Part shown: positions 14,489 to 29,426 of the stretch, piece by piece
Layout: each line of letters begins with the position of its first letter
Position numbering within the stretch: the stretch's first letter is position 1
Source of the DNA: a virus
IMG/VR virus record: IMGVR_UViG_3300025468_000010
Coordinates: 1 to 30,796 of that record
Length of the DNA: 30,796 nt
Reading direction: 5' to 3' (one strand)
Notes under the pieces: model-generated
What the model was told of the DNA's origin: nothing
The model's input: only the letters and a program-made list of their open reading frames with translations
Database searches by the model: none
Position numbers and translations under genes: made by a program

Positions 14489-14986
14489 ATGATTGATTTA
14501 TACAGCAACCACACGAATCCAGAGACATTGCATGGGTATAAAGATAGGTTTAAAATCCCAGGATTCGCATATGAAGAAGCAAAACGAACAGGTAACTGGA
14601 CAGAAGCAGAACCATATATAATGAAAGATCCATCTTCTGTATTTCTGTATGCTAGGTGGGTAATAGGAGACAGATGGTCAGAAGCCGAACCTTACATCAT
14701 GAAAGATCCATATTATGCATTTCTGTATGCTAGAGATGTAATAGAAGGCAGATGGAAAGAAGCCGAGCCATATATAATGAAAGATCCATCTTCTGCATTT
14801 CTGTATGCTAGGGGGGTAATAGGAGACAGATGGTCAGAAGCCGAGCCATATATAATGAAAGACCCAGAATATGCATATTGGTATGCTAGGGGGGTAATAG
14901 GAGACAGATGGTCAGAAGCTGAACCTTACATCATGAAAGATCCATCTTCTGCATATAACTACAAAGAATTCATAAGGGCACTATAA
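14489..14986 (+). CDS. EAEPYIMKDP-repeat protein 1
   Basis: A 165-residue protein with a unique N-terminal cap (SNHTNPETLHGYKDRFKIP), five repeats built on W.EAEPYIMKDP..A..YAR.VI.(G/D)R with a 26-residue period, and a C-terminal cap (YNYKEFIRAL). Regular helix-forming repeats suggest an alpha-solenoid interaction protein. Such repeats are, as I recall, common in marine phage proteins without known function. Its stop overlaps the ATG of the next gene (TAATG), so the three paralogues are probably translationally coupled. A late promoter lies just upstream and no Shine-Dalgarno is seen. Confidence 0.75.
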   Translation: MIDLYSNHTNPETLHGYKDRFKIPGFAYEEAKRTGNWTEAEPYIMKDPSSVFLYARWVIGDRWSEAEPYIMKDPYYAFLYARDVIEGRWKEAEPYIMKDPSSAFLYARGVIGDRWSEAEPYIMKDPEYAYWYARGVIGDRWSEAEPYIMKDPSSAYNYKEFIRAL

Positions 14987-15860
14987 TGATGAATTTATAC
15001 GAATATCACACAAATCCAGAGACATTATATGGCTATAAAGATAGGTTTAAAATCCCATTATTCGCATGGGAAGAAGCAGAACGAACAGGTAACTGGACAG
15101 AAGCAGAACCATATATAATGAAAGACCCAGAATCTGCATATTGGTATGCTAGGGGGGTAATAGGAGACAGATGGTCAGAAGCCGAACCTTACATCATGAA
15201 AGATCCATATTATGCATTTCTGTATGCTAGAGATGTAATAGAAGGCAGATGGAAAGAAGCAGAACCTTACATCATGAAAGATCCATATTATGCATTTCTG
15301 TATGCTAGAGATGTAATAGAAGGCAGATGGAAAGAAGCCGAGCCATATATAATGAAAGATCCATCTTCTGCATTTCTGTATGCTAGGTGGGTAATAGGAG
15401 ACAGATGGACAGAAGCCGAACCATATATAATGAAGAATCCATTTTCTGCATATAACTACAAAGAATTCATAAGGGCACTATAATGATGAATTTATACGAA
15501 TATCACACAAATCCAGAGACATTGCATGGGTATAAAGATAGGTTTAAAATCCCAGGATTCGCATATGAAGAAGCAAAACGAACAGGTAACTGGACAGAAG
15601 CCGAACCATATATAATGAAAGATCCTACATATGCATATCTGTATGCTAGGGATATAAGAAAAAAAGGAAGATGGCCAGAAGCCGAACCATATATAATGAA
15701 AGATCCATATTCTGCATATTGGTATGCTAGATATGTAATAGAAGGCAGATTTCCAGAAGCAGAACCATATATAATGAAAGACCCAGAATATGCATATATG
15801 TATGCTAGGGATATAAGAAAAAAAGGAAGATGGTCAGAAGCAGAACCAGCGATTGCTACA
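14600..15860 (+). repeat. Array of 78-bp coding repeats across three genes
   Basis: Fifteen or so copies of a 26-codon unit (EAEPYIMKDP + YAR + VI/GRW) run through three adjacent genes. Individual units differ by few bases and some are repeated verbatim between genes, as are the caps (for example TACAAAGAATTCATAAGGGC near 14960 and 15459). This indicates recent duplication and gene conversion. Confidence 0.85.
14986..15483 (+). CDS. EAEPYIMKDP-repeat protein 2
   Basis: The same length (165 residues) and architecture as the preceding gene: cap YHTNPETLYGYKDRFKIP, five 26-residue repeats, cap YNYKEFIRAL. Two consecutive repeats (KDPYYAFLYARDVIEGRW) are identical, evidence of very recent unit duplication. 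It starts at the overlapping TAATG; a second ATG directly follows. Binding partner and role unknown. Confidence 0.75.
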   Translation: MMNLYEYHTNPETLYGYKDRFKIPLFAWEEAERTGNWTEAEPYIMKDPESAYWYARGVIGDRWSEAEPYIMKDPYYAFLYARDVIEGRWKEAEPYIMKDPYYAFLYARDVIEGRWKEAEPYIMKDPSSAFLYARWVIGDRWTEAEPYIMKNPFSAYNYKEFIRAL

Positions 15861-16115
15861 TCGCATGTGGTTATTCGGTATGCCAATGATGTGATCAATG
15901 ATGATGTAACCCACGGGTTCAAGAAACGATGGAAAGAAGCTGAACCATACATACTACGCGATGCGCAGAAATCAGCATTGTATGCAATTATGCTTAATAC
16001 CCCCTGGGAGGAAGCAGAACCGATCATACGAACATCCAACTATTGGTGGGGTAGGTACGAAAGTATGGTTGAAGATAGTAATCACACCAGCATTGATGAA
16101 CTAGAAGTAGCGTAA
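15483..16115 (+). CDS. EAEPYIMKDP-repeat protein 3, longer and diverged C-terminus
   Basis: A 210-residue protein. It has the same N-terminal cap, then units of 26-27 residues (including YARDIRKKGRW variants). Its last units are eroded (SEAEPAIATSHVV, KEAEPYILRDAQKSA, EEAEPIIRTSNYWW), and it ends in a new tail, TSIDELEVA. It keeps the EAEP core six times. It starts at TAATG overlapping gene 2. It ends 3 nt from the convergent SGNH gene, with no terminator visible between them. Confidence 0.75.
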   Translation: MMNLYEYHTNPETLHGYKDRFKIPGFAYEEAKRTGNWTEAEPYIMKDPTYAYLYARDIRKKGRWPEAEPYIMKDPYSAYWYARYVIEGRFPEAEPYIMKDPEYAYMYARDIRKKGRWSEAEPAIATSHVVIRYANDVINDDVTHGFKKRWKEAEPYILRDAQKSALYAIMLNTPWEEAEPIIRTSNYWWGRYESMVEDSNHTSIDELEVA

Positions 16116-16118
16116 TAT

Positions 16119-16865
16119 CTATGTTCGGTTGAATCTCGACCCGATGCTAAGATCAGTGATTATATTCTTTTCCACTATATATTTCAGTAGCATTTTCGCC
16201 CATGCTGCATGTGCATCTGCACCATAATGCCACGAACCCCTAGTGACAGTGCTATAATCGTGTAGTTTAAGATATGCATCATATGTCCCATTATCTGTGT
16301 ACGGACTGATGTAATTGTAACCCCATTCTACCCTATCATCTTCTCTAATCTTGCTAAAGTTATTATTGCAATTAAAGAAAATGGGGTTGATCTTGCGGTC
16401 TCCTAGCCAATCACGCAGTTCTTTGGCATTTTCATATGCTTCATATGTTTTTTGTTTCCAATCCACATTAGTAACAAATTCTTTGTACTTGTCTTTATGG
16501 CTAGCAGGGATATCATCAATTCCACTAGCACCGACCTGGTGATATTCACCATCAATAAACCATTCTTCTCGTTCCCACGTACTCCATCCAATAATAACTA
16601 GTAATTCATCGTATGGAGTTTTTGTATTATCAATCCAATCTTTTGTAGTGCGAATAATGCGAGTATTGCTTGCAGCACTCTCTGCATCACAAAAGAAACT
16701 ATATTTTAGTAGTTCAGCTAATTTTTTGCCCCAACTAACATTAACATTATCTGGATGTGGTAATCTACCAAGCATTTTCAGTTTTGGGTCATCTTCTGCG
16801 AAAGCATGTGTGTTTGCTGCTTCCGCACCAGCAGTGTGGCTATCCCCATTTACATAAAGCATCAT
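16119..16865 (-). CDS. SGNH/GDSL-type hydrolase-like protein
   Basis: A 248-residue protein. It opens MMLYVNGDSHTAG, the block I GDSH motif with candidate nucleophile Ser9. It then has ESAASNTRIIRTT (Asn of block III region), VIIGWSTWEREEW, and a C-terminal WHYGADAHAAWAKML carrying the expected His. SGNH enzymes deacylate or demethylate esters on lipids, sugars or polysaccharides. No signal peptide, so cytosolic. It is a paralogue of the upstream gene, with which it overlaps by 4 nt and shares a 51-bp identical stretch. The substrate is unknown; glycan trimming alongside the glycosyltransferase-like genes is one guess. Confidence 0.7.
   Translation of the reverse strand: MMLYVNGDSHTAGAEAANTHAFAEDDPKLKMLGRLPHPDNVNVSWGKKLAELLKYSFFCDAESAASNTRIIRTTKDWIDNTKTPYDELLVIIGWSTWEREEWFIDGEYHQVGASGIDDIPASHKDKYKEFVTNVDWKQKTYEAYENAKELRDWLGDRKINPIFFNCNNNFSKIREDDRVEWGYNYISPYTDNGTYDAYLKLHDYSTVTRGSWHYGADAHAAWAKMLLKYIVEKNIITDLSIGSRFNRT
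16542..16592. repeat. 51-bp identical repeat, copy 1
   Basis: Identical to 17261-17311. It encodes the shared IGWSTWEREEWFIDGEY segment of the two SGNH paralogues. Identity at silent positions, against strong divergence elsewhere, suggests gene conversion. Confidence 0.8.
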
Positions 16866-17530
16866 ATTATTCTATTTTCTGTAATATGATTGATTAGGCA
16901 ATCAGCCCAAATGGTATGTCCAGCTGCATCAAAATGATATTGATCATCTGGAAATGGATGGTGATTATTAACTCTGACAAGATAATCATACATTGTATAA
17001 TCATCGTTGTATGGATGAATATATTCGGCAATATCATTGTCTAGTCCTTCTACTCGATCCAATGCGATGTAGTTATTCCACATAAAAAATTGAATATCGT
17101 GATCATATAACCATTCAATGTAGTTATGAATTTTTGAATTCCATTCGATTGCTTTTTGTGTCATGTAGCCGTGTGTATTATCTACCTTCTCCCGCCATTC
17201 ATTATATCTAGATAGTGCATTGGGTGGAATGTCATTGAGTGAATACTGATCAACATTTACATATTCACCATCAATAAACCATTCTTCTCGTTCCCACGTA
17301 CTCCATCCAATGAATACCATAAGGTCGTCTTGTGGGTCTTGATTGCTTACCCATTCATTTGTTCGTCGTATGATTTGGTCATTGCTTGCACCGAACCTAG
17401 CATGGCATTCAAAATTTAAACCAAAATGATCCATTATCTTGGTAGCAAAATTATCTTTGTCTGGTACATGTCCATCGGCTGTGCTAGCATCTTCTACATT
17501 GCTATCACTCATTATGAAATATTTTTTCAT
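16862..17530 (-). CDS. SGNH hydrolase-like paralogue, altered GDSH motif
   Basis: A 222-residue protein related to the downstream gene. It starts MKKYFIMSDSNVEDAST, where the GDSH motif is replaced by SDSN (Ser kept, His and Gly changed). It has RFGASNDQIIRRTNEW and FIGWSTWEREEW, and a C-terminal YHFDAAGHTIWADCL with Asp and His kept. It may be active with altered specificity or be a non-catalytic partner. The ATG overlaps the stop of the 95-residue gene by 4 nt (ATGA), and it overlaps the next gene the same way, so all are one operon. Confidence 0.65.
   Translation of the reverse strand: MKKYFIMSDSNVEDASTADGHVPDKDNFATKIMDHFGLNFECHARFGASNDQIIRRTNEWVSNQDPQDDLMVFIGWSTWEREEWFIDGEYVNVDQYSLNDIPPNALSRYNEWREKVDNTHGYMTQKAIEWNSKIHNYIEWLYDHDIQFFMWNNYIALDRVEGLDNDIAEYIHPYNDDYTMYDYLVRVNNHHPFPDDQYHFDAAGHTIWADCLINHITENRII
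17261..17311. repeat. 51-bp identical repeat, copy 2
   Basis: Identical to 16542-16592; see that entry. Confidence 0.8.
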
Positions 17531-17814
17531 TTGATCGCTTCTGCTTGTTCGTATGTTTCCATCACTATATTACGGCATATATTTTGAAACCATTGATCAA
17601 CTAATGTAGAGTCATCTTTGCCTTGGTATCCTGCTTTAATTAATCTAGCTACGAATATTTCATTCCAATCTAATTCAAATGCACCGTTGTTTAGGTCCGT
17701 TGGATCAACATCCATTGATATTACTTCAACCCATGGTTCTCCTCGTTCTGATGCTAATTCTTTTGCTGTTTTCAGTTCTTTTTTGTGTTTTCGTTTCTTT
17801 AACCATTCAATCAT
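17527..17814 (-). CDS. Conserved phage hypothetical protein (95 aa)
   Basis: A basic N-terminus (MIEWLKKRKHKKELKTA) is followed by a segment (GAFELDWNEIFVARLIKAGY and STLVDQWFQNICRNIVME) that I recall from T4-like cyanophage proteins of unknown function. AAGGA lies 8 nt before the ATG. It overlaps the nadE end by 8 nt and the next gene by 4 nt. Confidence 0.7.
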   Translation of the reverse strand: MIEWLKKRKHKKELKTAKELASERGEPWVEVISMDVDPTDLNNGAFELDWNEIFVARLIKAGYQGKDDSTLVDQWFQNICRNIVMETYEQAEAIK

Positions 17815-18568
17815 TGTATTTTTCCTTATATGTTGGAATTGGTATCATCTTATGTAAATTGGCATTGCGTATGTCTTTGTATTTGATGAGGTTAGCACAT
17901 TCTCCGTCTGTTTTGGGAGTGATATTATTTTCATGATAGTACATTGCTTGTTCTAACTCTTGGTATGTTAATCCAAGTTGATCAATATCAGTTCTATTAT
18001 CTTCCCAAAGTCCATCAGTTGGGATGGCATCAATGATTTGCTGATCAATACCCAATTCTTTTCCGAGATTCCATACTTCTGTCTTTGTTAAGTCTGCGAT
18101 AGGTGATATATCAACACCACCATCACCATATTTTGTAAAAAACCCTACCCCGAAATCTTCTACTTTATTCCCAGTACCAACAACAATGCTGCTTGTACTT
18201 TGTGCTATTTGGTATAGATACATCATACGTAATCTGCTTTTACTATTAGCAAATGCCAATTCATTATCGTATATATCTGCTTTATCAACGAACACATCAA
18301 AAACATCGGTTAAATCTTTGTTATGATGTGTTATATTAATATGGTCATCCAATAATTGAGTTGAATGAAGAATACTCAATGAATGTAAATCTTCGTTTTG
18401 GTGGATTGGCATAGATACTACGGTTGTTGGTAACCCAGTATTTGCACATAATTTACTTACGACAGAACTATCAATGCCGCCACTAATACCAATAGTAAGT
18501 CCATTGATCTTATGTTTCGCTGTGTAATTTTCGATCCAACTTGATATTTTTGCAGATAACATAGTCAT
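17807..18568 (-). CDS. nadE: NAD+ synthetase (ammonia-dependent)
   Basis: A 253-residue NadE-type enzyme that amidates nicotinic acid adenine dinucleotide to NAD+ using ATP and ammonia. It has the N-type ATP pyrophosphatase loop SGGIDSS (residues 29-35), FANSKSRLRMMYLYQIAQ, VVGTGNKVEDFGVGFFTKYG, and DGGVDISPIADLTKTEVWNL, all hallmark NadE segments. There is no glutaminase domain. The longer frame from 18610 is rejected: the ATG at 18568 overlaps the upstream stop (ATGA) and has AAGG upstream. It lies in an operon with HIT and SGNH proteins. Phage NAD synthesis could support replication or offset NAD-depleting defences; this is inference. Confidence 0.92.
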   Translation of the reverse strand: MTMLSAKISSWIENYTAKHKINGLTIGISGGIDSSVVSKLCANTGLPTTVVSMPIHQNEDLHSLSILHSTQLLDDHINITHHNKDLTDVFDVFVDKADIYDNELAFANSKSRLRMMYLYQIAQSTSSIVVGTGNKVEDFGVGFFTKYGDGGVDISPIADLTKTEVWNLGKELGIDQQIIDAIPTDGLWEDNRTDIDQLGLTYQELEQAMYYHENNITPKTDGECANLIKYKDIRNANLHKMIPIPTYKEKYND

Positions 18569-18936
18569 ATTTTGGATACCTTTTGATCTCTGTGCTGAAA
18601 CGAACAACATTCTTCATTCCCTTCTGACCCATACCTTCTATGTGCTTTGCATAGTTCTTTCTTCGGTAGCCATTCCCCATCATTCATATACACATCGGGT
18701 GGAATTACGGTTTCTTTCCCATCAAAGCATTCGGTGATAGTGATATCATTAGGGTCTTCTTTGTGTTTTTTAAGGTATCCGCAGATACCACATATAGTGT
18801 CACTAAACCAGTTGATCACGATATCATTATCACCTTCAAATACTTGCAGTGATGCCTGATATGTATATGGTAACCGTGGGTCTTCTTTTTTAATCCAATT
18901 ATATCTATTACCAAAGAATCTTTTAAATAATCCCAT
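18565..18936 (-). CDS. Cys-rich hypothetical protein
   Basis: About 123 residues from MGLFKRFFGNRYNW. It contains CGICGYL, then ITECFDGKE, LCKAHRR and ECCSFQH. The paired cysteines and histidine suggest a metal (zinc) site. AGGA lies about 10 nt before this ATG. A start at 18966 would overlap the HIT gene and lacks a ribosome site. Its stop overlaps the nadE ATG. Function unknown. Confidence 0.6.
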   Translation of the reverse strand: MGLFKRFFGNRYNWIKKEDPRLPYTYQASLQVFEGDNDIVINWFSDTICGICGYLKKHKEDPNDITITECFDGKETVIPPDVYMNDGEWLPKKELCKAHRRYGSEGNEECCSFQHRDQKVSKI

Positions 18937-18937
18937 T

Positions 18938-19345
18938 TTAATAATCCTGTTTCTCTGGTATAACACCTCTTATACCACCGCGTGGGTTCACCGTATCTCC
19001 GAGTCTACGTGGGATTAAATGTATATGGCAATGTGGGATTGTTTGCTCTGCCTGTTCGCCATCATTGATACCCATATTAAATGATGCGATTGTGTCATCT
19101 AGAGCTTCCAAGTATGTTTTTGCCCAGAATAATGCCTTATCCATTTCCTGCCGTTCACGTAATGCTAGGTCAAAATAAGATTCAACGTGTGCATATGGTA
19201 TTACTAGGCAATGATGCTTAGTTACCGCATATGCATCATATTTCACATAGCAAAAATGTCCTCTCCAGATGACTCCCCCCATGCTGATATCTGGGGATGT
19301 TATTGTAGCTTCTTCTAAACAAAACGGACAATCTAATTCGTACAT
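18938..19345 (-). CDS. HIT-family (histidine triad) hydrolase
   Basis: A 135-residue protein. It has the catalytic triad HCHIHLIPRR (His105, His107, His109), an N-terminal zinc knuckle half CPFC (Cys6, Cys9), HHCLVIPYAHVESYFDL and FNMGINDGEQAEQT, all typical HIT features. Such proteins hydrolyse nucleoside phosphoramidates and dinucleotides such as Ap4A or adenylylated intermediates. It starts 12 nt after the protease gene and is followed by the Cys-rich gene and nadE, so a nucleotide or adenylate clean-up role beside NAD synthesis is reasonable but inferred. Confidence 0.9.
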   Translation of the reverse strand: MYELDCPFCLEEATITSPDISMGGVIWRGHFCYVKYDAYAVTKHHCLVIPYAHVESYFDLALRERQEMDKALFWAKTYLEALDDTIASFNMGINDGEQAEQTIPHCHIHLIPRRLGDTVNPRGGIRGVIPEKQDY

Positions 19346-19357
19346 GTGTATTTCTCT

Positions 19358-22300
19358 TTATTTAAATTGGTAGGTTAAATTAACCCCTGTGTTATAATCT
19401 TCTTTGTCTGCAACTGTGGTTACTGTTACCGATGTGTCATCCGATGTGTATTTCCATCCAATACCAGCAAATATTTCAACTGAATTATTAATGCTAGTAT
19501 CAGTGCTAGTATAGTACATTGACCCATCATTGTCAACGCTTGATGGTACATCCATATTTATTTTTCCAGCAAATGCCGTTGGTTTTATTCCACCATATAG
19601 ATTGACTGCATCGTTATCCCATCCCATGACTGAATATACCGAATGAATAGTATCCACATCATTCACCAACCCAGGGTTATAATCTGTATTTGTATTCATT
19701 ATGCCCAATTGTGTCCAGAACTTGTCTTTGCGCCATACTAGATTAGTATCAACGGTAGATGATCCATTCGTTTCACCCCAAATTCCTGACATTTGAATCC
19801 AAGGACTATTATCAGCTTCGGTATAGCTAATATTTACATCAATATTATTATACCAATTAAAATTATACCCAAATGAATAGTTATTCTCATCACTCATTGC
19901 ATATGTATAGTTGTTATTTGTGATAGCTGTTAAATTGGCATATTTAATACCCCAAGATGCACCGTCGGTGTGTGATAGATGTGCTATATTGCTGTTATTT
20001 TCAGTTACTAATCCCGATAAATCAACCGTAAAATCTCGATCAAAACCATCCACTGCAATTACTGAACTTATTGCGCTTGTATCAATACCATCAAACGAAA
20101 TACCCCCACCAACCGATGTTGTGGCACCTGTTCTGCCTGTGAGACTAATGCCCAAATTGCCAATTGGTCTTGTTGCTTGGTCTAAGTCCATTAACCCTTG
20201 CCCATGTGTATTAGCATTATAGCCATTGATGTTCTTATTCGCAGTCTGTAGTAATACTTGTGCGATATTTTTACCTTGCATGTATGGCCAAAGTTGGTGA
20301 ACTATTGCAACTCCCCCAGCGACAGCAGGGGCAGCCATGCTTGTGCCACTCATGGAAGTATAACCACCACCATTCTGGACGCTATTGATGCTTGTTCCTG
20401 GTGCTAAAATATAAAAATCACTAGTCGCATATGGGTCATTGCATTGGGTAGTATAATCTTTGCATACATGTCCTGATTTAGCACCATCAATTGCTTGTGA
20501 ACTAGTGTTCCAATTGCCAACTACTAGCATCCTGCCATCCATTATAAGATCACCATTCGCATTTACTGCACTTGCAAATGTAGCAGGGTTCTGAACATAT
20601 CCTAAATCATAGTTGCCGGCACTTATTGTTAATACTAACTCACTCGGTAATACATCCCCCCAATCTTGTGGATTCTCTTGGTTGTAATAGTTAGTACCAC
20701 CATAATATACATGGTTATTAGTATAAACACCATTGCCGTGATCGGTTATGCTATTCTTATAATCATTGCTATAATTTGTATTAGCACTGATATTAGCAGC
20801 CACTATATCTTCGTGTTGTTTAGCCCAATCTAGGGCTTGCCTCGCACCAGATAGACTAATGCCATTTTGTTCACCTATCTTAGCAACGGCAATATCAGCA
20901 TCATATGCAATACCATGAGATCCTAACCCATCCTTATTTCCTGCTGCAATGCCAGCTACGTGGCTACCATGACCATTCTCATCTTCATACGGGGTGTCAT
21001 ACCCAGCATCCCATAAGTATTTGATTTTTCCAGTAAATGCTTCGTGATCTTGGTCAATGCCAGTGTCAATAATCATAATAGTTGATCCTTTTCCTGTCCA
21101 TCCCCTTGCATACGCATAGTTGGCATTTACATCAAGTACTGATCCATTGTCTGCCTCTACCGTAGAAAAATCAGCAGGATCATTGCTATTTACTACGGTT
21201 GGTGTCCCCACTGATGGGTTATTATAGTATGTATTATAATCATATGTGGTTGGATCAAAGTCCAATGATGGTGCATTCGGTTGTGTTACCGTTCCGCCAT
21301 TGCTATCAGGGGCTTCTGGCTCACTGGGTGTTGATTCTGGTGCTACCACTCTCGTAGTGACTTCTTCCGATGTTGTGATTTCTTCAGTTACTTGGGTATC
21401 AATAACACCGGTTGTAGTAGAACCATCAGTGTATGAAGTTGCACGAGTAGTTGTTACAGTAGTTGTGATAGTTGTAGTTGTTGTCCAAACATCATAATAG
21501 AACATCCATACACCATCTTCGCGGGTATCTGTATTTTCAATGGTATCAGATAAAACAGGATCACTTATGACCGTAGTAGTTGACGATGAAGTTGAATCTT
21601 CGTAACCAACCACATTTGGTGTTATCGTTTCTGACACCATTTCTTCACGGGTGCTAGTGGTGATACTTTCAGCAATAGCTTCAGAAGTATTAACACCAAC
21701 GATTTCCGTGGTTGTACTGCCATCAGTCCATATCGAAGTTCTAGTAGTAGTAACCGTGGTTGTGGTTGTAATAGGTGTTGTGGTGGTGTCGGTATACACT
21801 GTCCATACTTGTGTTACTGTGCTGCCATTTGCATCTGTGGATGTACGAGTATCAGTTACAGAGGTTGTGGTTGTAGTTGGTGTTCCATTCATTGCTGCAT
21901 CTTCGGAAATGTCTTCGTCACTGGTGCTTACGATGTTAGGAGAAACCGTTGTTGATAGCAGTGATTCATTGGTAGTAGTAGTTACTTGGTCTTCTATAGT
22001 TGATGTTGTCGTGGTGCCAATGACTTCCGATGTAGTAGTGCCATCTGAATGCGTTGTAATCCTCGTAGTTGTAGTTGTAACGGTAGTTGTGATAGGAATA
22101 GTTGTTATGTCAGTGTATATTTTCCATGTTTTGGTAATGGAATTACCATTTACATCGGTTGAGGCACGGGTTTCTTCGGTGGTAGATGATACGGTGGTTG
22201 GTGTTCCTGAAACTAAAGTGACAGCACTGGATGATGTAGTTGTTTCAGTAGGACATTGGGTATTTCGTTCTTCGGTATCAGTGCGGATAAAGTCACCTTT

Positions 22301-22549
22301 GATGCCAGTGGGTTGTCCATTGATATACTTTTCAAACCATACATCCTGGCTATATACATCTGCTGTACATAGTGGATTATCTGCTGTATCTGTTGTAGGA
22401 ACATTTGAACTTGTCATTTTCCATTGATCATAGATACCATTCCCCCATGAAATATTTCCGCTGGGTTTTGTTCCTCCACCGCCCCCACCGCATGCGGTAA
22501 GGACAAATACAGAAGTAATTACAATAGCAGTTTTTGTTTTCTTGAACAT
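19358..22549 (-). CDS. Giant lipoprotein subtilisin-like (S8) protease, autotransporter-like
   Basis: A 1063-residue protein. A lipoprotein signal (MFKKTKTAIVITSVFVLTAC) puts the lipid on Cys20, followed by a Gly run. Residues about 100-420 are Thr/Ser/Val-rich with three or four degenerate repeats (TTTVTTTR.S...DGSTTTE(I/V)(I/V)G), a stalk-like region. A peptidase S8 domain follows, with triad Asp about 495 (IIDTGID), His about 530 (NGHGSHVAG) and Ser about 737 (SGTSMAAPA). The last 250 or so residues are beta-rich with alternating patterns (NNYTYAMSDENNYSFGY, IFAGIGWKYTSDD) and end LTYQFK, like an outer-membrane barrel. Surface protease function is inferred. A weak promoter (22586-22614) precedes it; it heads a seven-gene operon. 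It is unusual on a phage. Confidence 0.85.
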   Translation of the reverse strand: MFKKTKTAIVITSVFVLTACGGGGGGTKPSGNISWGNGIYDQWKMTSSNVPTTDTADNPLCTADVYSQDVWFEKYINGQPTGIKGDFIRTDTEERNTQCPTETTTSSSAVTLVSGTPTTVSSTTEETRASTDVNGNSITKTWKIYTDITTIPITTTVTTTTTRITTHSDGTTTSEVIGTTTTSTIEDQVTTTTNESLLSTTVSPNIVSTSDEDISEDAAMNGTPTTTTTSVTDTRTSTDANGSTVTQVWTVYTDTTTTPITTTTTVTTTRTSIWTDGSTTTEIVGVNTSEAIAESITTSTREEMVSETITPNVVGYEDSTSSSTTTVISDPVLSDTIENTDTREDGVWMFYYDVWTTTTTITTTVTTTRATSYTDGSTTTGVIDTQVTEEITTSEEVTTRVVAPESTPSEPEAPDSNGGTVTQPNAPSLDFDPTTYDYNTYYNNPSVGTPTVVNSNDPADFSTVEADNGSVLDVNANYAYARGWTGKGSTIMIIDTGIDQDHEAFTGKIKYLWDAGYDTPYEDENGHGSHVAGIAAGNKDGLGSHGIAYDADIAVAKIGEQNGISLSGARQALDWAKQHEDIVAANISANTNYSNDYKNSITDHGNGVYTNNHVYYGGTNYYNQENPQDWGDVLPSELVLTISAGNYDLGYVQNPATFASAVNANGDLIMDGRMLVVGNWNTSSQAIDGAKSGHVCKDYTTQCNDPYATSDFYILAPGTSINSVQNGGGYTSMSGTSMAAPAVAGGVAIVHQLWPYMQGKNIAQVLLQTANKNINGYNANTHGQGLMDLDQATRPIGNLGISLTGRTGATTSVGGGISFDGIDTSAISSVIAVDGFDRDFTVDLSGLVTENNSNIAHLSHTDGASWGIKYANLTAITNNNYTYAMSDENNYSFGYNFNWYNNIDVNISYTEADNSPWIQMSGIWGETNGSSTVDTNLVWRKDKFWTQLGIMNTNTDYNPGLVNDVDTIHSVYSVMGWDNDAVNLYGGIKPTAFAGKINMDVPSSVDNDGSMYYTSTDTSINNSVEIFAGIGWKYTSDDTSVTVTTVADKEDYNTGVNLTYQFK

Positions 22550-22585: not shown

Positions 22586-22614
22586 AGTGTACTATGATTG
22601 CACTGGGTTGTCTA
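22586..22614 (-). promoter_or_regulatory. Possible sigma70 promoter of the protease operon
   Basis: TAGACA (22609-22614), a 17-nt spacer and TACACT (22586-22591) on the minus strand, leaving a leader of about 30 nt with AAAGGTG near the ATG. It is weaker than the other early promoters. Confidence 0.4.
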
Positions 22615-22625
22615 ATAGAAAAATT

Positions 22626-23231
22626 TTATGAGGCTATATTAATTTTTCTTATGTCTGGGTATGTGTGTGAATATGCGTTGTTTATGTTGCCAAACCCATT
22701 GATACCATCGATACATTCTTCGGGTCTCATCATATAATGATATCCTACTTGAAATTCTTTTTGATCTTGCCAGGGAGAAATACTAATATCACGCCCATCG
22801 TAACTTGCTTTTTTAAACCATTCATATGCTTCTTTGGTATCAGTCAGAATAGCACCGCCCCTTCCAATTTCCAATGGCTTAGTTCTGCCAAAACTTAAAC
22901 ATTGAAATTGGTCAGGAAGATACATATTAACTTCTAGCATCCTTGCACTATCCCATATTGAAGTGTTGCCTAATTGGTATCTTCCTTCCCATTCATATTC
23001 TTCAATTTCATAATCTAATTGTAACTTATGCATCAACATCGGCACACTAAGATATGTCCTATATGGTATGGTAATAGTCTCTGATGGTTTTAGATACCGT
23101 AAACATAATTCCATAGCATGAGTGCAACAATCAGTAGCAACAGCATAGGGTGATCCAGTGTATGTTGCCAATTTATTTTCAAAATCAGCTATAGCATCAA
23201 ATGGATTATCATAATCGGATAGTTCAATCAT
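22626..23231 (-). CDS. Half-length DegT/DnrJ/EryC1-type aminotransferase-like protein
   Basis: A 201-residue protein covering roughly the N-terminal half of a PLP-dependent sugar aminotransferase (usual length about 370). Visible segments are FENKLATYTGSPYAVATDCCTHAM (PLP-phosphate loop region), TIPYRTYLSVPMLM, SIWDSAR and CLSFGRTKPLEIGRGGAILT. The last has the SF...K motif with the Schiff-base lysine. The C-terminal substrate domain is absent; the protein ends after MMRPEECIDGIN. Either it is a truncated or minimal form or it acts with another subunit. Its ATG overlaps the stop of the 70-residue gene (ATGA). Confidence 0.75.
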   Translation of the reverse strand: MIELSDYDNPFDAIADFENKLATYTGSPYAVATDCCTHAMELCLRYLKPSETITIPYRTYLSVPMLMHKLQLDYEIEEYEWEGRYQLGNTSIWDSARMLEVNMYLPDQFQCLSFGRTKPLEIGRGGAILTDTKEAYEWFKKASYDGRDISISPWQDQKEFQVGYHYMMRPEECIDGINGFGNINNAYSHTYPDIRKINIAS

Positions 23232-26134: not shown

Positions 26135-27121
26135 TTATATTTCAAATAAATTCTCAAATGTACTATTAATATCTGTGTTAGCTACGATACCCCAATCCAA
26201 TACCCCTAGTAAGTTATCTAGCTTTTTGTCAATAATGGTATCTTCCATAAGCTGGTCATCAAATGGCAACTCTTTAAACCATTCGGGTAAGTGTGCTTCA
26301 TCGGTTGGATATCCAATACTTGTCCATCCCAATTGATTGGGTTTTAATTTACACACAATAGTTTTCATGCCATCTACAATTGGCGCACTATGGTTATCAT
26401 TATTCATTCTACGCATATTATTCCAGTTTAATGCAGCACGAACATGCCCAGGCATATTAGCCTTTCCTTGTTCCTTCTCTAAGTTGCCGTATTTTGTTAA
26501 ATTATTCACTCTTTTCGGTGTTCCTTTTTCCCAACTCTGCATATTGTGAAACTTATGCTTAAAGTCCTTGGCATGATCAATGACATGTTCTTTGGATGAT
26601 CCCGTCAATGTATCATATAATATATCGCTTAGGAAATCTTGAACTATAGGAGGTGTATCACTTCGTTTAAGATCCAATCCCATTGCTTTTACTTTGCCAG
26701 GCTTACCATCAGTGTCCAGTCGGTCGCCTTCGTTATCATACACTAATACTGCATATCGTTTTTTAGTAATAAACAACGCACTTTCTGCATTGATTTCACG
26801 ACCACATTTAATAATTTCACCCTTTTCATGGGGTGCATGATGTGCAGTAGCCATGTATTTAGGAAAGCTAATATTAACTTCATCTGCTATTTGGTCATAT
26901 AGTTGAATAGCTAAGTCTTTATTCCATTTCTGCTCTCCTGCTTCTACTGCATCTTTTAATACTGGCCATGCAGAGAAATATGCTGAATCTGTGTTATGCA
27001 CAGCAATATCATTTGCAAAAAATATCGGCTCTTTGTTTTTTATAGAAATATCATATACGTATTGAGTAGTTCGCTCTAATTTTTCTATTTTGGTTATTCG
27101 TTGTCTGTATGTTTTAACCAT
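26135..27121 (-). CDS. 43: DNA polymerase C-terminal fragment with C-intein
   Basis: A 328-residue protein. Residues 1-43 are a C-terminal split intein: block F YVYDISI and block G IFFANDIAVHN, with the terminal Asn43 followed by Thr44 as +1 residue. From Thr44 the C-extein begins TDSAYFSAWP, completing motif C (YGD/TDS) of a family B polymerase. It continues with ALFITKKRYAVLVYD (KKRY), GLDLKRSDTP, then thumb sequence, ending STFENLFEI, a likely clamp-binding tail. Joined to the upstream fragment after trans-splicing, the product would be 606 + 285 = 891 residues (T4 gp43 is 898). The upstream frame is closed, so this is a genuine separate gene. Confidence 0.92.
   Translation of the reverse strand: MVKTYRQRITKIEKLERTTQYVYDISIKNKEPIFFANDIAVHNTDSAYFSAWPVLKDAVEAGEQKWNKDLAIQLYDQIADEVNISFPKYMATAHHAPHEKGEIIKCGREINAESALFITKKRYAVLVYDNEGDRLDTDGKPGKVKAMGLDLKRSDTPPIVQDFLSDILYDTLTGSSKEHVIDHAKDFKHKFHNMQSWEKGTPKRVNNLTKYGNLEKEQGKANMPGHVRAALNWNNMRRMNNDNHSAPIVDGMKTIVCKLKPNQLGWTSIGYPTDEAHLPEWFKELPFDDQLMEDTIIDKKLDNLLGVLDWGIVANTDINSTFENLFEI
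26993..27121 (-). other. C-terminal half of split intein (43 aa)
   Basis: The region encoding residues 1-43 of the C-fragment gene, ending His42-Asn43 before Thr44. Asn cyclisation and the Thr nucleophile would complete splicing. The first 20 residues (MVKTYRQRITKIEKLERT) lead into block F. Confidence 0.9.
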
Positions 27122-27246
27122 TTAACACACTCTTCGATAATAGTTGATTCATTTTCATTATATTCTGATTCCCAAATAATTTTAGTTTCGATGCCACGCT
27201 GTTCTTTTAACGTGTCTATTTTTATTTTATCCTTGTTCCAAATGTC
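27094..27246 (-). pseudogene. Remnant of a Vsr-like homing endonuclease C-terminus
   Basis: A 50-codon open frame with no start codon, bounded by TAA at 27247-27249 and TAA at 27094-27096. It reads DIWNKDKIKIDTLKEQRG, then IETKIIWESEYNENES and IIEECVKWLKH. The pattern W..D..K...LK..G......IWE.(E/D)(Y/W) is the C-terminal core of Vsr/EDxHD-type endonucleases found in phages. It fills the gap between the two polymerase fragments and runs 28 nt into the C-intein gene. Vsr-like homing endonuclease genes between split-intein halves are known from marine 'fractured genes'. Here the catalytic N-terminal part is gone. The assignment rests on a short motif. Confidence 0.6.
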
Positions 27247-27251
27247 TTATG

Positions 27252-29426
27252 CTAAACGGATATTATTAGATCGTCCTCCAATAATTCAACAGGTGTAATT
27301 TCGTGAATGGAACCATCGCGATCAATTATAATACTATGATCTTCAGTTACCGTAACACTTTTACCATCTTCGACTGTTATTTTATACATTTGCTTATCAG
27401 TCTTATGGCGCATTACATAACTAATTTCGTTATATTCTGCAACATCGTCTACTGAGTTATATCCCAGTACTTTAGTATCTTCGTCTGTTACTATTGCATA
27501 TTCTTTGCCGTGTTCTGTTTCTACTTTGTGCGATATACTATTGTATAAATCTGCAATAGTACTATCCTCTTCCTCGAATACACGAATCATCGAATCGCCT
27601 GTAACGCTATCACCATATACAATACATTCTCCATCGTGTTTGTATTTGCCAGTCAGACATTGGTTCACATAAGCATCCATGTGTTGTGCAATAGCACGAC
27701 CAGTTAACGTGGTTGATTGACCAATTCGCTTATCAAAAAACCGACAATGCTTGTTAAGAATCGCACCATACAATGAATTCAATAGAATTTTCTTTACTAG
27801 TTGGCGTTTATCCCAGAACGCAATATCTTCTTTGGTGGTGCTTTCTCTTTTCTTTTTCTGCATAACTTTACGTTCGGCATACCATCGTTCTAATAATCCA
27901 GGTATGATGCCTTCATTTTCATATGAAAAGATGGTTCCATTTGCACTTAATGCCCAATTACTAGCTGGGTTAAATACAATATCATATAATTCAGATGCCA
28001 TATGTTTTGATGTTTTGCCATCATCCCAATCAACATCTATTTCAATATCAGATCTCTTGCCCATTACCTCGGAATATTCTAACGAACTGAATAACCCCTC
28101 CCATGCACCAGCGAATGTTACTTGCGTTTCTCCTTTCCGCTTAGTCATTTTATCTTTGATATATTTGTCAGTTTTGGTAGGTCTTAACTGTCCAATAATC
28201 GTTTCGGGTGCCATGTTCAATGACCGGATAATTGATGGATATAGACTATTGATATCTATTGATCCGATCCATTTGTGAATACCTTTTTTTGGATAAGCAA
28301 CATATGCGCCAGCCGCCTTTGTATTCATTATCTCCTCTTTGGTTTTGTTTGGGACTACAAAACCACGTTCATGTGCTTCATTAATAATTGCCTGTTCAAT
28401 CAGTGCAACCGACCCAGCAGTAGTTGGGATCAGCACAGTATTCGCATGTGCTAACTCGTTAGCTAAATCTAAAAATTTTAATTTCCTATCTAGTTTAGCT
28501 AGTAACATTGTATCTTGTAAGCTATATTCGATGAATTTTTTAAAATCCTGGTTGTACAGCTGGTCTAATGTTCCCTTGTATGGGACTTTATGTTCACCAA
28601 GTTCATATTCAGCAATTGCATCAAGTGCATACGAATGCATTTCGTGATATGTGTATTTTTGGTATAGTTGCATATAATCCATATGGATTCTGCCAACGAG
28701 ATCATATGTTTGTTGTTCCTTGCCATATCGTTCAAATGTGCGTTTTTTTGGAAGTTTGTTCCATAAGCAGAATTTCCTAGTAGCATTCTTGTTCATTATC
28801 TTGGTAACACGATTTACTTGGTATGGGATATCATATGCTTCACTGTTCCATCCTGACAGTACATCAGCATCATCAATTAGTAGGAAAAAAGCCTCAACCA
28901 TTTCTACTTCGGTATTGAATAGAATAACATCATCCTTCTCAAATCCATTAACGATATCATTTGCTTCCGTTGGTGTTAATGTAGAAGGTGCAATCACGAG
29001 ACAAATTAATTTATCTAACCAATTAAGATACAATGAAATTGCAGTTATTTGGTTGAATGGATCAGAAGTTGGGGCATACCCCCTTTCTTGGCAAAAATCT
29101 GTCTCAATATCAAAGAATGCTGTGTGTAAGGTAGGTGAATCTACATCTTTGTAATTCTCAGATAAAAAACGAAAGACAGGGTTAAAATCACTCTCATATA
29201 TTTTTTTATTGTTGTGAATTTTCAACTCTTTGTAAAAATCTGTACTAGACTTGCATTTAACATGGCTAACAGGTGTTCGGTGTGTACTTTTATATTTTCC
29301 ATTTGGGTCATCGTAATAGAATTCATATATGGCAGGAAAATCTTTTAATATCCTTTTGCCATCTATGCGTTCTGCTATCTGTATTTTATCATTATCGCGA
29401 TCATAGATCGCATCAACATACGACAC
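27252..29426 (-). CDS. 43: DNA polymerase N-terminal fragment (gp43-like) with N-intein
   Basis: A 724-residue protein starting at GTG (TAGTG overlap with the preceding stop). Family B polymerase motifs appear in order: exo I FFDIETD (near 107), exo II GWNSEAYDIPY, exo III YSLQDTMLLAKL, motif A SIDINSLYPSII and motif B KKILLNSLYGAI. The extein breaks after Asp606 in CIVYGD. Residues 607-724 are a 118-residue N-intein: Ser607 start SVTGDSMIRV (block A), TVTEDHSII (block B, with TxxH), ending LLEDDLIISV. So the catalytic YGDTDS is split and should be restored by protein trans-splicing. It replicates the phage genome with gp45 clamp and lagging-strand factors. Confidence 0.93.
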   Translation of the reverse strand: MSYVDAIYDRDNDKIQIAERIDGKRILKDFPAIYEFYYDDPNGKYKSTHRTPVSHVKCKSSTDFYKELKIHNNKKIYESDFNPVFRFLSENYKDVDSPTLHTAFFDIETDFCQERGYAPTSDPFNQITAISLYLNWLDKLICLVIAPSTLTPTEANDIVNGFEKDDVILFNTEVEMVEAFFLLIDDADVLSGWNSEAYDIPYQVNRVTKIMNKNATRKFCLWNKLPKKRTFERYGKEQQTYDLVGRIHMDYMQLYQKYTYHEMHSYALDAIAEYELGEHKVPYKGTLDQLYNQDFKKFIEYSLQDTMLLAKLDRKLKFLDLANELAHANTVLIPTTAGSVALIEQAIINEAHERGFVVPNKTKEEIMNTKAAGAYVAYPKKGIHKWIGSIDINSLYPSIIRSLNMAPETIIGQLRPTKTDKYIKDKMTKRKGETQVTFAGAWEGLFSSLEYSEVMGKRSDIEIDVDWDDGKTSKHMASELYDIVFNPASNWALSANGTIFSYENEGIIPGLLERWYAERKVMQKKKRESTTKEDIAFWDKRQLVKKILLNSLYGAILNKHCRFFDKRIGQSTTLTGRAIAQHMDAYVNQCLTGKYKHDGECIVYGDSVTGDSMIRVFEEEDSTIADLYNSISHKVETEHGKEYAIVTDEDTKVLGYNSVDDVAEYNEISYVMRHKTDKQMYKITVEDGKSVTVTEDHSIIIDRDGSIHEITPVELLEDDLIISV
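27255..27608 (-). other. N-terminal half of split intein (118 aa)
   Basis: Begins at Ser607 (AGC codon 27606-27608) immediately after YGD, ends before the TAG at 27252-27254. Contains splicing blocks A and B, with the conserved His of TEDHS. The break after block B is where endonuclease domains normally sit. Confidence 0.9.

What the first reader, a model, noticed from the sequence alone, without database searches (positions are those of the whole stretch)
19358..22549. Phage-borne lipoprotein subtilase with Thr-rich stalk and barrel-like C-terminus
A 1063-residue surface-type protease with a lipobox, an intact Asp/His/Ser triad and a beta-rich C-terminal domain is bacterial in style, yet it heads a phage operon. 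It could process host surface proteins, mature virion or receptor proteins, block superinfection or act on neighbouring cells. Having both a lipid anchor and a barrel-like end is odd.
Basis: partly seen in the sequence, partly recalled or inferred. Interest (0 to 1): 0.75.

Follow-up and report, generated by a model that had tools for sequence, protein, structure and literature searches.

The report
Phage-encoded, surface-anchored subtilisin-like protease
A clade of large marine, T4-like bacterial viruses carries a gene for a protein-cutting enzyme built to be displayed on the outer surface of the infected cell, in the same layout that some bacteria use to trim their own surface proteins; the virus may use it to change the surface of its host.

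Summary
AlphaFold2 models that domain as a 12-stranded barrel (pLDDT mostly 70-94); its structural matches are all outer-membrane barrels, NalP and EspP translocators among them. It is not a host-phage chimera: at least seven distinct viral relatives, one on a 213-kb contig with a T4 Gp23 capsid gene, share architecture and location. The gene is under purifying selection and in most relatives has its own near-consensus sigma-70 promoter. Broader phage kin lack it, so it looks like a lineage-specific acquisition. Lipid anchor plus barrel is not odd: it is the layout of NalP and SphB1, lipidated subtilase autotransporters that process surface proteins. New are the phage carriage and a leash of variable repeat number, absent from the compact bacterial homologues examined. 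Most likely it is made early, displayed on the outer membrane and cuts surface proteins, plausibly to block superinfection; substrate and function are untested. It lacks a PF03797 match, so I call it autotransporter-like.

The parts
19358..22549 (-). Whole gene: lipoprotein subtilase with Thr-rich stalk and C-terminal barrel, 1063 aa
   Evidence: ORF and translation; full-length relatives
22490..22549 (-). Lipoprotein signal peptide, residues 1-20, lipobox LTAC with Cys20 followed by GGGGGG
   Evidence: Seen in the sequence; lipobox and Gly run kept in the viral relatives whose start is on the contig
22253..22453 (-). Conserved N-terminal domain (about residues 33-99, W.NG.YD.W...WWEK..NG..TGIKG), duplicated in tandem in relative L034
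   Evidence: Alignment; L034 read
21290..22252 (-). Thr-rich stalk of ~107-aa repeats (clear copies at about residues 130 and 237, a diverged third after ~335); repeat number varies among relatives
   Evidence: repeats found only in members of this family in IMG/VR at this pattern sensitivity
20195..21094 (-). S8 subtilase catalytic domain, residues 486-785
   Evidence: Pfam PF00082 E 4.6e-35; search of own record
21065..21067 (-). Catalytic Asp495
   Evidence: invariant
20969..20971 (-). Catalytic His527
   Evidence: invariant
20612..20614 (-). Oxyanion-hole Asn646
   Evidence: invariant
20339..20341 (-). Catalytic Ser737 (GTSMAAP)
   Evidence: invariant
19364..19924 (-). Predicted 12-stranded outer-membrane beta-barrel, residues about 876-1062
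   Evidence: AlphaFold2 models; structure matches all OM barrels
22587..22615 (-). Weak sigma-70-like promoter TAGACA-17-TACACT in the upstream gap; counterpart of near-consensus promoters in relatives
   Evidence: Read off the upstream sequences; consensus scan of relatives
22626..23231 (-). Upstream DegT/StrS-like aminotransferase-related gene, found upstream of the subtilase within a few kb in relatives (neighbour, not part of the mechanism proposed)
   Evidence: Pfam; synteny

Best explanation
It is a phage-encoded, lipidated subtilase that works like the NalP/SphB1 type of autotransporter. Inferred steps: early after infection the host RNA polymerase transcribes it; the host Sec and lipoprotein machinery export and lipidate it at Cys20; the Bam machinery inserts the C-terminal 12-stranded barrel into the outer membrane; the subtilase domain reaches the cell surface, tethered by the lipid through a long Thr-rich leash whose repeat number (and so reach) varies among the phages. 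There it cuts proteins on the surface of the infected cell, most plausibly receptors or other exposed proteins, so that superinfecting phage cannot adsorb and progeny are not lost on the dying cell and its debris. Supported by sequence or model: lipobox, intact active site, barrel model, phage location, purifying selection, sigma-70 promoters in relatives. Not shown: transcription timing, surface exposure, activity, substrate, effect on infection. The layout and surface location I hold at about 0.85; the shaving/exclusion role is the uncertain part of the overall figure.
For: Lipobox and intact active site. 12-strand barrel model, with only outer-membrane barrels among the top matches: NalP translocator 1uyn Z 11.3, rmsd 3.9, 181 aligned; EspP and BrkA beta-domains; KdgM Z 13.0, rmsd 2.7, 142 aligned. 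Aligned relatives end in the aromatic residue usual for outer-membrane proteins (YKF, VTF). Best solved-structure match by sequence is 8e7f, which I take from memory to be the Serratia Ssp passenger described in PMC9977779. NCBIfam's best match is the EprS autotransporter peptidase, far below its cut-off. Bacterial lipoprotein homologues with the same order of domains, barrel profiles alike at E 2.4e-6. Phage setting: synteny, Gp23 on the 213-kb contig, PolB nearest PA5oct-like jumbo phages. Purifying selection: dN/dS about 0.18 (protease) and 0.28 (barrel) for L007 versus L009. Promoters with at most one mismatch in relatives. NalP and SphB1 process surface proteins and depend on lipidation for it (PMC9289746); T5 Llp shows a phage using an OM lipoprotein for superinfection exclusion (PMC9586334).
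Against: No match to the Pfam autotransporter barrel PF03797, and no pore-spanning helix is modelled with confidence. NalP and EspP score no better than 12-stranded porins, so the barrel could anchor rather than translocate. The window's promoter is weak (three mismatches) and its protein ends in F-K rather than F. No substrate, receptor cleavage or superinfection test. The gene is absent from broader kin, so it is dispensable there.
Confidence: 0.45

Rival explanations
1. Auxiliary nutrient enzyme: the surface protease digests dissolved or neighbouring-cell protein and feeds peptides to the infected cell for virion synthesis.
For: Surface-type export layout; sits among metabolic cargo such as NadE, and near GTP cyclohydrolase and SAM synthetase genes in a relative.
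Against: Lipid tether plus barrel anchor favours cutting on the own surface over free digestion; infection is short; no peptide transporter or peptidase seen beside it.
Confidence: 0.15
2. Maturase: it processes a specific surface-exposed host or phage-encoded protein, as SphB1 does for FhaB, rather than removing receptors.
For: SphB1 and NalP mature other surface proteins (PMC9289746).
Against: No large surface substrate gene is conserved next to it in the loci read.
Confidence: 0.12
3. Release aid: it weakens outer-membrane protein contacts late in infection to help lysis or to free progeny from debris.
For: Would also benefit from surface display and a long leash; inference only.
Against: Near-consensus host-type promoters in relatives and a location near replication genes point to early or middle expression; no lysis genes recognised nearby.
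Confidence: 0.1
4. Virion or tail component that digests surface protein during adsorption.
For: Phage tail proteins often carry enzymes; one small conserved neighbour (17527-17814) resembles a PHROG virion structural protein.
Against: Lipoprotein signal kept in relatives and an outer-membrane barrel; the gene lies near PolB and exonuclease genes.
Confidence: 0.05
5. Assembly chimera or recent bacterial DNA caught in a phage contig.
For: Bacterial in style; a copy lies on a contig binned with a gammaproteobacterial MAG.
Against: Same place and architecture in independent contigs from other samples; the MAG copy nests inside the phage clade and sits beside a gene with a strong PHROG match.
Confidence: 0.02

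Closest known systems
NalP (Neisseria) and SphB1 (Bordetella), lipidated subtilase autotransporters
   Same: Lipobox, S8 protease domain, C-terminal outer-membrane barrel (12 strands in NalP); structure match to the NalP translocator Z 11.3
   Different: Phage-encoded; added Thr-rich repeat leash and conserved N-terminal domain; no PF03797 match; substrates unknown
Serratia Ssp / Pseudomonas EprS subtilase autotransporters
   Same: Closest solved protease domain by sequence (8e7f) and closest NCBIfam model
   Different: Shorter region between protease and barrel here; 70 bits against a cut-off of 1700 for EprS
Compact bacterial lipoprotein subtilases (examples in L020, L003 Sphingomonas, L004 Thioalkalivibrio)
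   Same: Lipobox with CGG(G)n, subtilase, C-terminal barrel-like domain with aromatic end; barrel profiles related, E 2.4e-6
   Different: About 760 aa, no Thr-rich stalk; on a bacterial contig or plasmids
PHROG 3677 'protease' and BFVD phage proteins A0A6J5L9S5 / A0A6J5TBB6
   Same: phrog_3677 matches residues 474-887 at 1.6e-28; the BFVD proteins share the barrel fold, TM 0.70 and 0.52, one annotated as S8 peptidase
   Different: Uncharacterised, automatic names; whether they carry lipobox and stalk was not checked
Phage T5 Llp superinfection-exclusion lipoprotein
   Same: Phage-encoded outer-membrane lipoprotein acting on a host surface receptor (PMC9586334)
   Different: Llp is a small periplasmic binder, not a protease or barrel; analogy of role only

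Membership tests
S8 subtilase (PF00082) | Domain match over the curated cut-off | tested here: met
   121.8 bits versus cut-off 21.8
S8 subtilase (PF00082) | Asp/His/Ser triad and oxyanion Asn | tested here: met
   D495, H527, S737, N646, invariant in eight sequences
Type Va autotransporter | Sequence match to translocator family PF03797 | tested here: not met
   No match at E 0.1 for five relatives nor at E 0.01 for the window protein
Type Va autotransporter | C-terminal 12-stranded outer-membrane beta-barrel | tested here: met
   AlphaFold2 models with 12 strands, mostly at high confidence; only OM barrels among the matches. A prediction, not a structure
Type Va autotransporter | Alpha-helix threading the barrel pore | tested here: inconclusive
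   Residues before the barrel modelled at pLDDT under 50
Type Va autotransporter | Aromatic C-terminal beta-signal | tested here: inconclusive
   Aligned relatives end in F; the window protein ends QFK
Type Va autotransporter | Passenger secreted with the help of its own barrel | not testable with these tools
   Needs expression
Lipidated subtilase autotransporters (NalP/SphB1) | Lipobox at the N-terminus | tested here: met
   VFVLTAC20, conserved in viral relatives whose start is present; lipidation itself untested
Lipidated subtilase autotransporters (NalP/SphB1) | Cleavage of surface proteins | not testable with these tools
   No experiment
EprS equivalog (NF051851) | Score over 1700 bits | tested here: not met
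   70 bits
PHROG 3677 phage protease | Profile match | tested here: met
   1.6e-28, residues 474-887

The most novel reading that the evidence does not exclude
A lineage of large T4-like marine phages converts the infected cell's outer membrane into a protease-coated surface, using a leashed, lipid-tethered autotransporter-like subtilase that strips phage receptors: superinfection exclusion by receptor proteolysis, which I do not know to have been described for a phage-encoded surface protein.
Probability: 0.3. Interest if true: 0.8.

Novelty: new variant of a known kind. Interest (0 to 1): 0.55.

Why it matters
The phage superinfection-exclusion proteins I know of are small binders and blockers; an enzyme built for display on the host surface would be a different strategy. 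It would also show lytic T4-like phages taking over a bacterial surface-protease layout, keeping it under selection and extending it with a variable-length leash. The gene is small enough to express in a laboratory E. coli strain, so the idea is directly testable.

Tried and rejected
Chimera: rejected by synteny in independent contigs. Core gene of the wider phage family: rejected; 11 loci holding both the exonuclease and DegT-like neighbours lack it, and among 127 loci fetched through neighbouring genes only three, all from contigs already known as members, carry it, though many of those loci are too short to cover the site. Bacterial origin of the MAG copy: doubtful, as it nests within the phage clade and sits beside a phage-type gene. 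Stalk repeats shared with other viral proteins: none found beyond this family at this pattern sensitivity. Sequence match of the barrel to solved structures: none meaningful. Scans with single-sequence patterns of the whole protein and of the barrel found nothing. T4-type late promoter motif TATAAATA: none in the window. T4 portal family PF07230: no match anywhere, controls included, so uninformative. Structure prediction of the stalk was not run: the queue was full and the second job went to the barrel. Host assignment: not resolved; no host genome could be tied to these contigs. Papers describing phage-encoded subtilase autotransporters: none found in the open-access library with the terms tried. 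Phage subtilases as such are known: 38 phage records, 22 of them Bacillus phages, match a generic viral subtilase.

Full report
WHAT IS THERE. The gene lies at 22549-19358 on the minus strand and encodes 1063 residues. From N to C: a lipoprotein signal peptide ending in LTAC20 and followed by six glycines; a small conserved domain (about residues 33-99); a Thr-rich stalk with repeats of about 107 residues; an S8 subtilase domain at 486-785 (PF00082, E 4.6e-35) with D495, H527, N646 and S737 in place; and a C-terminal domain. The window is a 30.8-kb virus record carrying a family B DNA polymerase, an exonuclease, NAD synthetase and other phage-type genes.

IT IS A PHAGE GENE. Viral contigs hold full-length or near-full-length relatives: L007 (1100 aa), L008 (open at its start), L009 (1525 aa), L014/L015 (1105 aa), L016/L017 (1289 aa), L027/L028 (1327 aa) and L034 (cut by the contig end). 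L014/L015, L016/L017 and L027/L028 are pairs of near-identical or identical genes, so there are at least seven distinct relatives. Local comparison shows conserved neighbours in the same order: PolB, a phrog_12062 gene, the DegT-like gene, then the protease, the DUF6071-type gene and the exonuclease, as far as each locus reaches. The 213-kb contig G006 also has a T4 Gp23 major capsid gene, E 6.6e-99, and the window's PolB is nearest to those of PA5oct-like jumbo phages.

IT IS MAINTAINED, BUT NOT CORE. dN/dS between L007 and L009 is about 0.18 for the protease and 0.28 for the barrel (most other pairs are near saturation at silent sites), so the protein is under constraint in this lineage. Yet 11 loci that hold both flanking genes lack it. 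The simplest reading is an acquisition at a fixed site in a subclade. The one genome-collection hit, on a 4.2-kb contig of a gammaproteobacterial MAG, nests inside the phage clade beside a gene that matches a PHROG at 1.7e-27; the 23 other genomes searched in that order lack it. It is likely a misbinned phage contig or a phage-derived copy. In a sample of 369 gammaproteobacterial genomes only one other strong relative was seen: L020, a 773-aa lipoprotein subtilase without the stalk, next to a histidine-kinase-like and an ABC-transporter ORF (names by eye). Similar compact proteins are on Sphingomonas and Thioalkalivibrio plasmids. The barrel profiles of the two groups are related (hhalign E 2.4e-6, probability 89%, 82 columns). 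A bacterial origin of the phage gene is an inference from this.

THE BARREL. The domain alone gave mean pLDDT 72, with 12 strands mostly at 70-94 and lower at the last two. Foldseek and VIA-align place it among outer-membrane barrels: KdgM Z 13.0, NanC 12.2, NalP translocator 11.3 (rmsd 3.9, 181 aligned), EspP and BrkA beta-domains about 10-11. The porins score as well as the translocators, so the fold says 12-stranded OM barrel, not autotransporter in particular. The aligned relatives end in F, as outer-membrane proteins usually do; the window ends QFK. No PF03797 match was found, so I do not file it as a type Va member but say that it works like one.

LIPID PLUS BARREL IS KNOWN. NalP and SphB1 are subtilase autotransporters that stay on the surface for a time by N-terminal lipidation and process other surface proteins (PMC9289746; PMC9977779). 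The order of parts here is the same. What is new is the phage carriage and the Thr-rich leash, which varies from about two or three repeats (window, L007, L014) to about seven (L009), and whose repeats were found only in this family. By analogy, if the protease is cut from the barrel it would stay tethered by its lipid through the leash; this is inference.

EXPRESSION. In L007, L009 and L014 the gene has its own TTGAC(G/C)-17-TATAAT promoter, and in L016, L027 and L034 TTGACA-16-TATAAT, directly upstream; the window has a weaker TAGACA-17-TACACT. Similar promoters precede other genes in these contigs, so this marks a host-polymerase (early or middle) class rather than something unique to this gene. 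Timing is inferred from the promoter type only.

FUNCTION. Most likely the infected cell displays the protease on its outer membrane and exposed proteins are cut. The benefit that best fits a lytic phage is loss of receptors: no superinfection and no progeny lost on debris. T5's Llp lipoprotein is a precedent for the aim, by another mechanism (PMC9586334). Nutrient supply, maturation of a specific surface protein, or release remain possible. None of these was tested, and the host is unknown beyond an implied Gram-negative envelope.

NOVELTY. Phage-borne subtilases are known, BFVD already holds two uncharacterised phage proteins with a related barrel, and the lipid-protease-barrel layout is known from bacteria. 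I found no paper on a phage-encoded protein of this layout in the library searched. It is a new variant of a known kind.

Noticed in passing
26135-29426 (-): The family B DNA polymerase gene is split into two ORFs by a likely split intein inserted in the YGD|TDS motif: the N half ends in an intein N part (Pfam Intein_splicing), the C half starts with an intein C part ending VHN|TDS. The ~130-bp gap holds an out-of-frame stretch that looks by eye like the tail of a homing endonuclease. Relatives L022-L024 have the polymerase without this insertion.
   Followed up: partly
14489-16115 (+): Three adjacent ORFs made of 78-81-bp tandem repeats (W.EAEPYIMKDP..AY.YA), themselves near-copies of each other with a 497-bp period; related repeats occur in L022 and L024. 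Function unknown.
   Followed up: no
L034 5683-7765: In this relative the conserved N-terminal domain of the protease is duplicated in tandem before the stalk, suggesting a modular surface domain.
   Followed up: no
L009 9917-10750 (+): A phage gene for an ion-transport channel protein (PF00520, E 4.2e-45) directly follows the protease.
   Followed up: no
16119-17530 (-): Two adjacent, related genes of the DUF6071 type (the second below the Pfam cut-off); one of them has relatives in most of the 127 related phage loci fetched.
   Followed up: no
842-1420: A 270-bp unit repeated about twice within the 496-aa ORF at 696-2186, 90% matches.
   Followed up: no
17807-18610 (-): The NAD synthetase gene is 75% identical in DNA over 327 bp to that of Pelagibacter phage HTVC008M, a sign of gene exchange between marine phages or of shared descent.
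   Followed up: no
18938-19345 (-): A HIT-domain gene directly follows the protease; it gives a weak PADLOC match to ThsC (4.4e-9), probably just the shared HIT fold.
   Followed up: no
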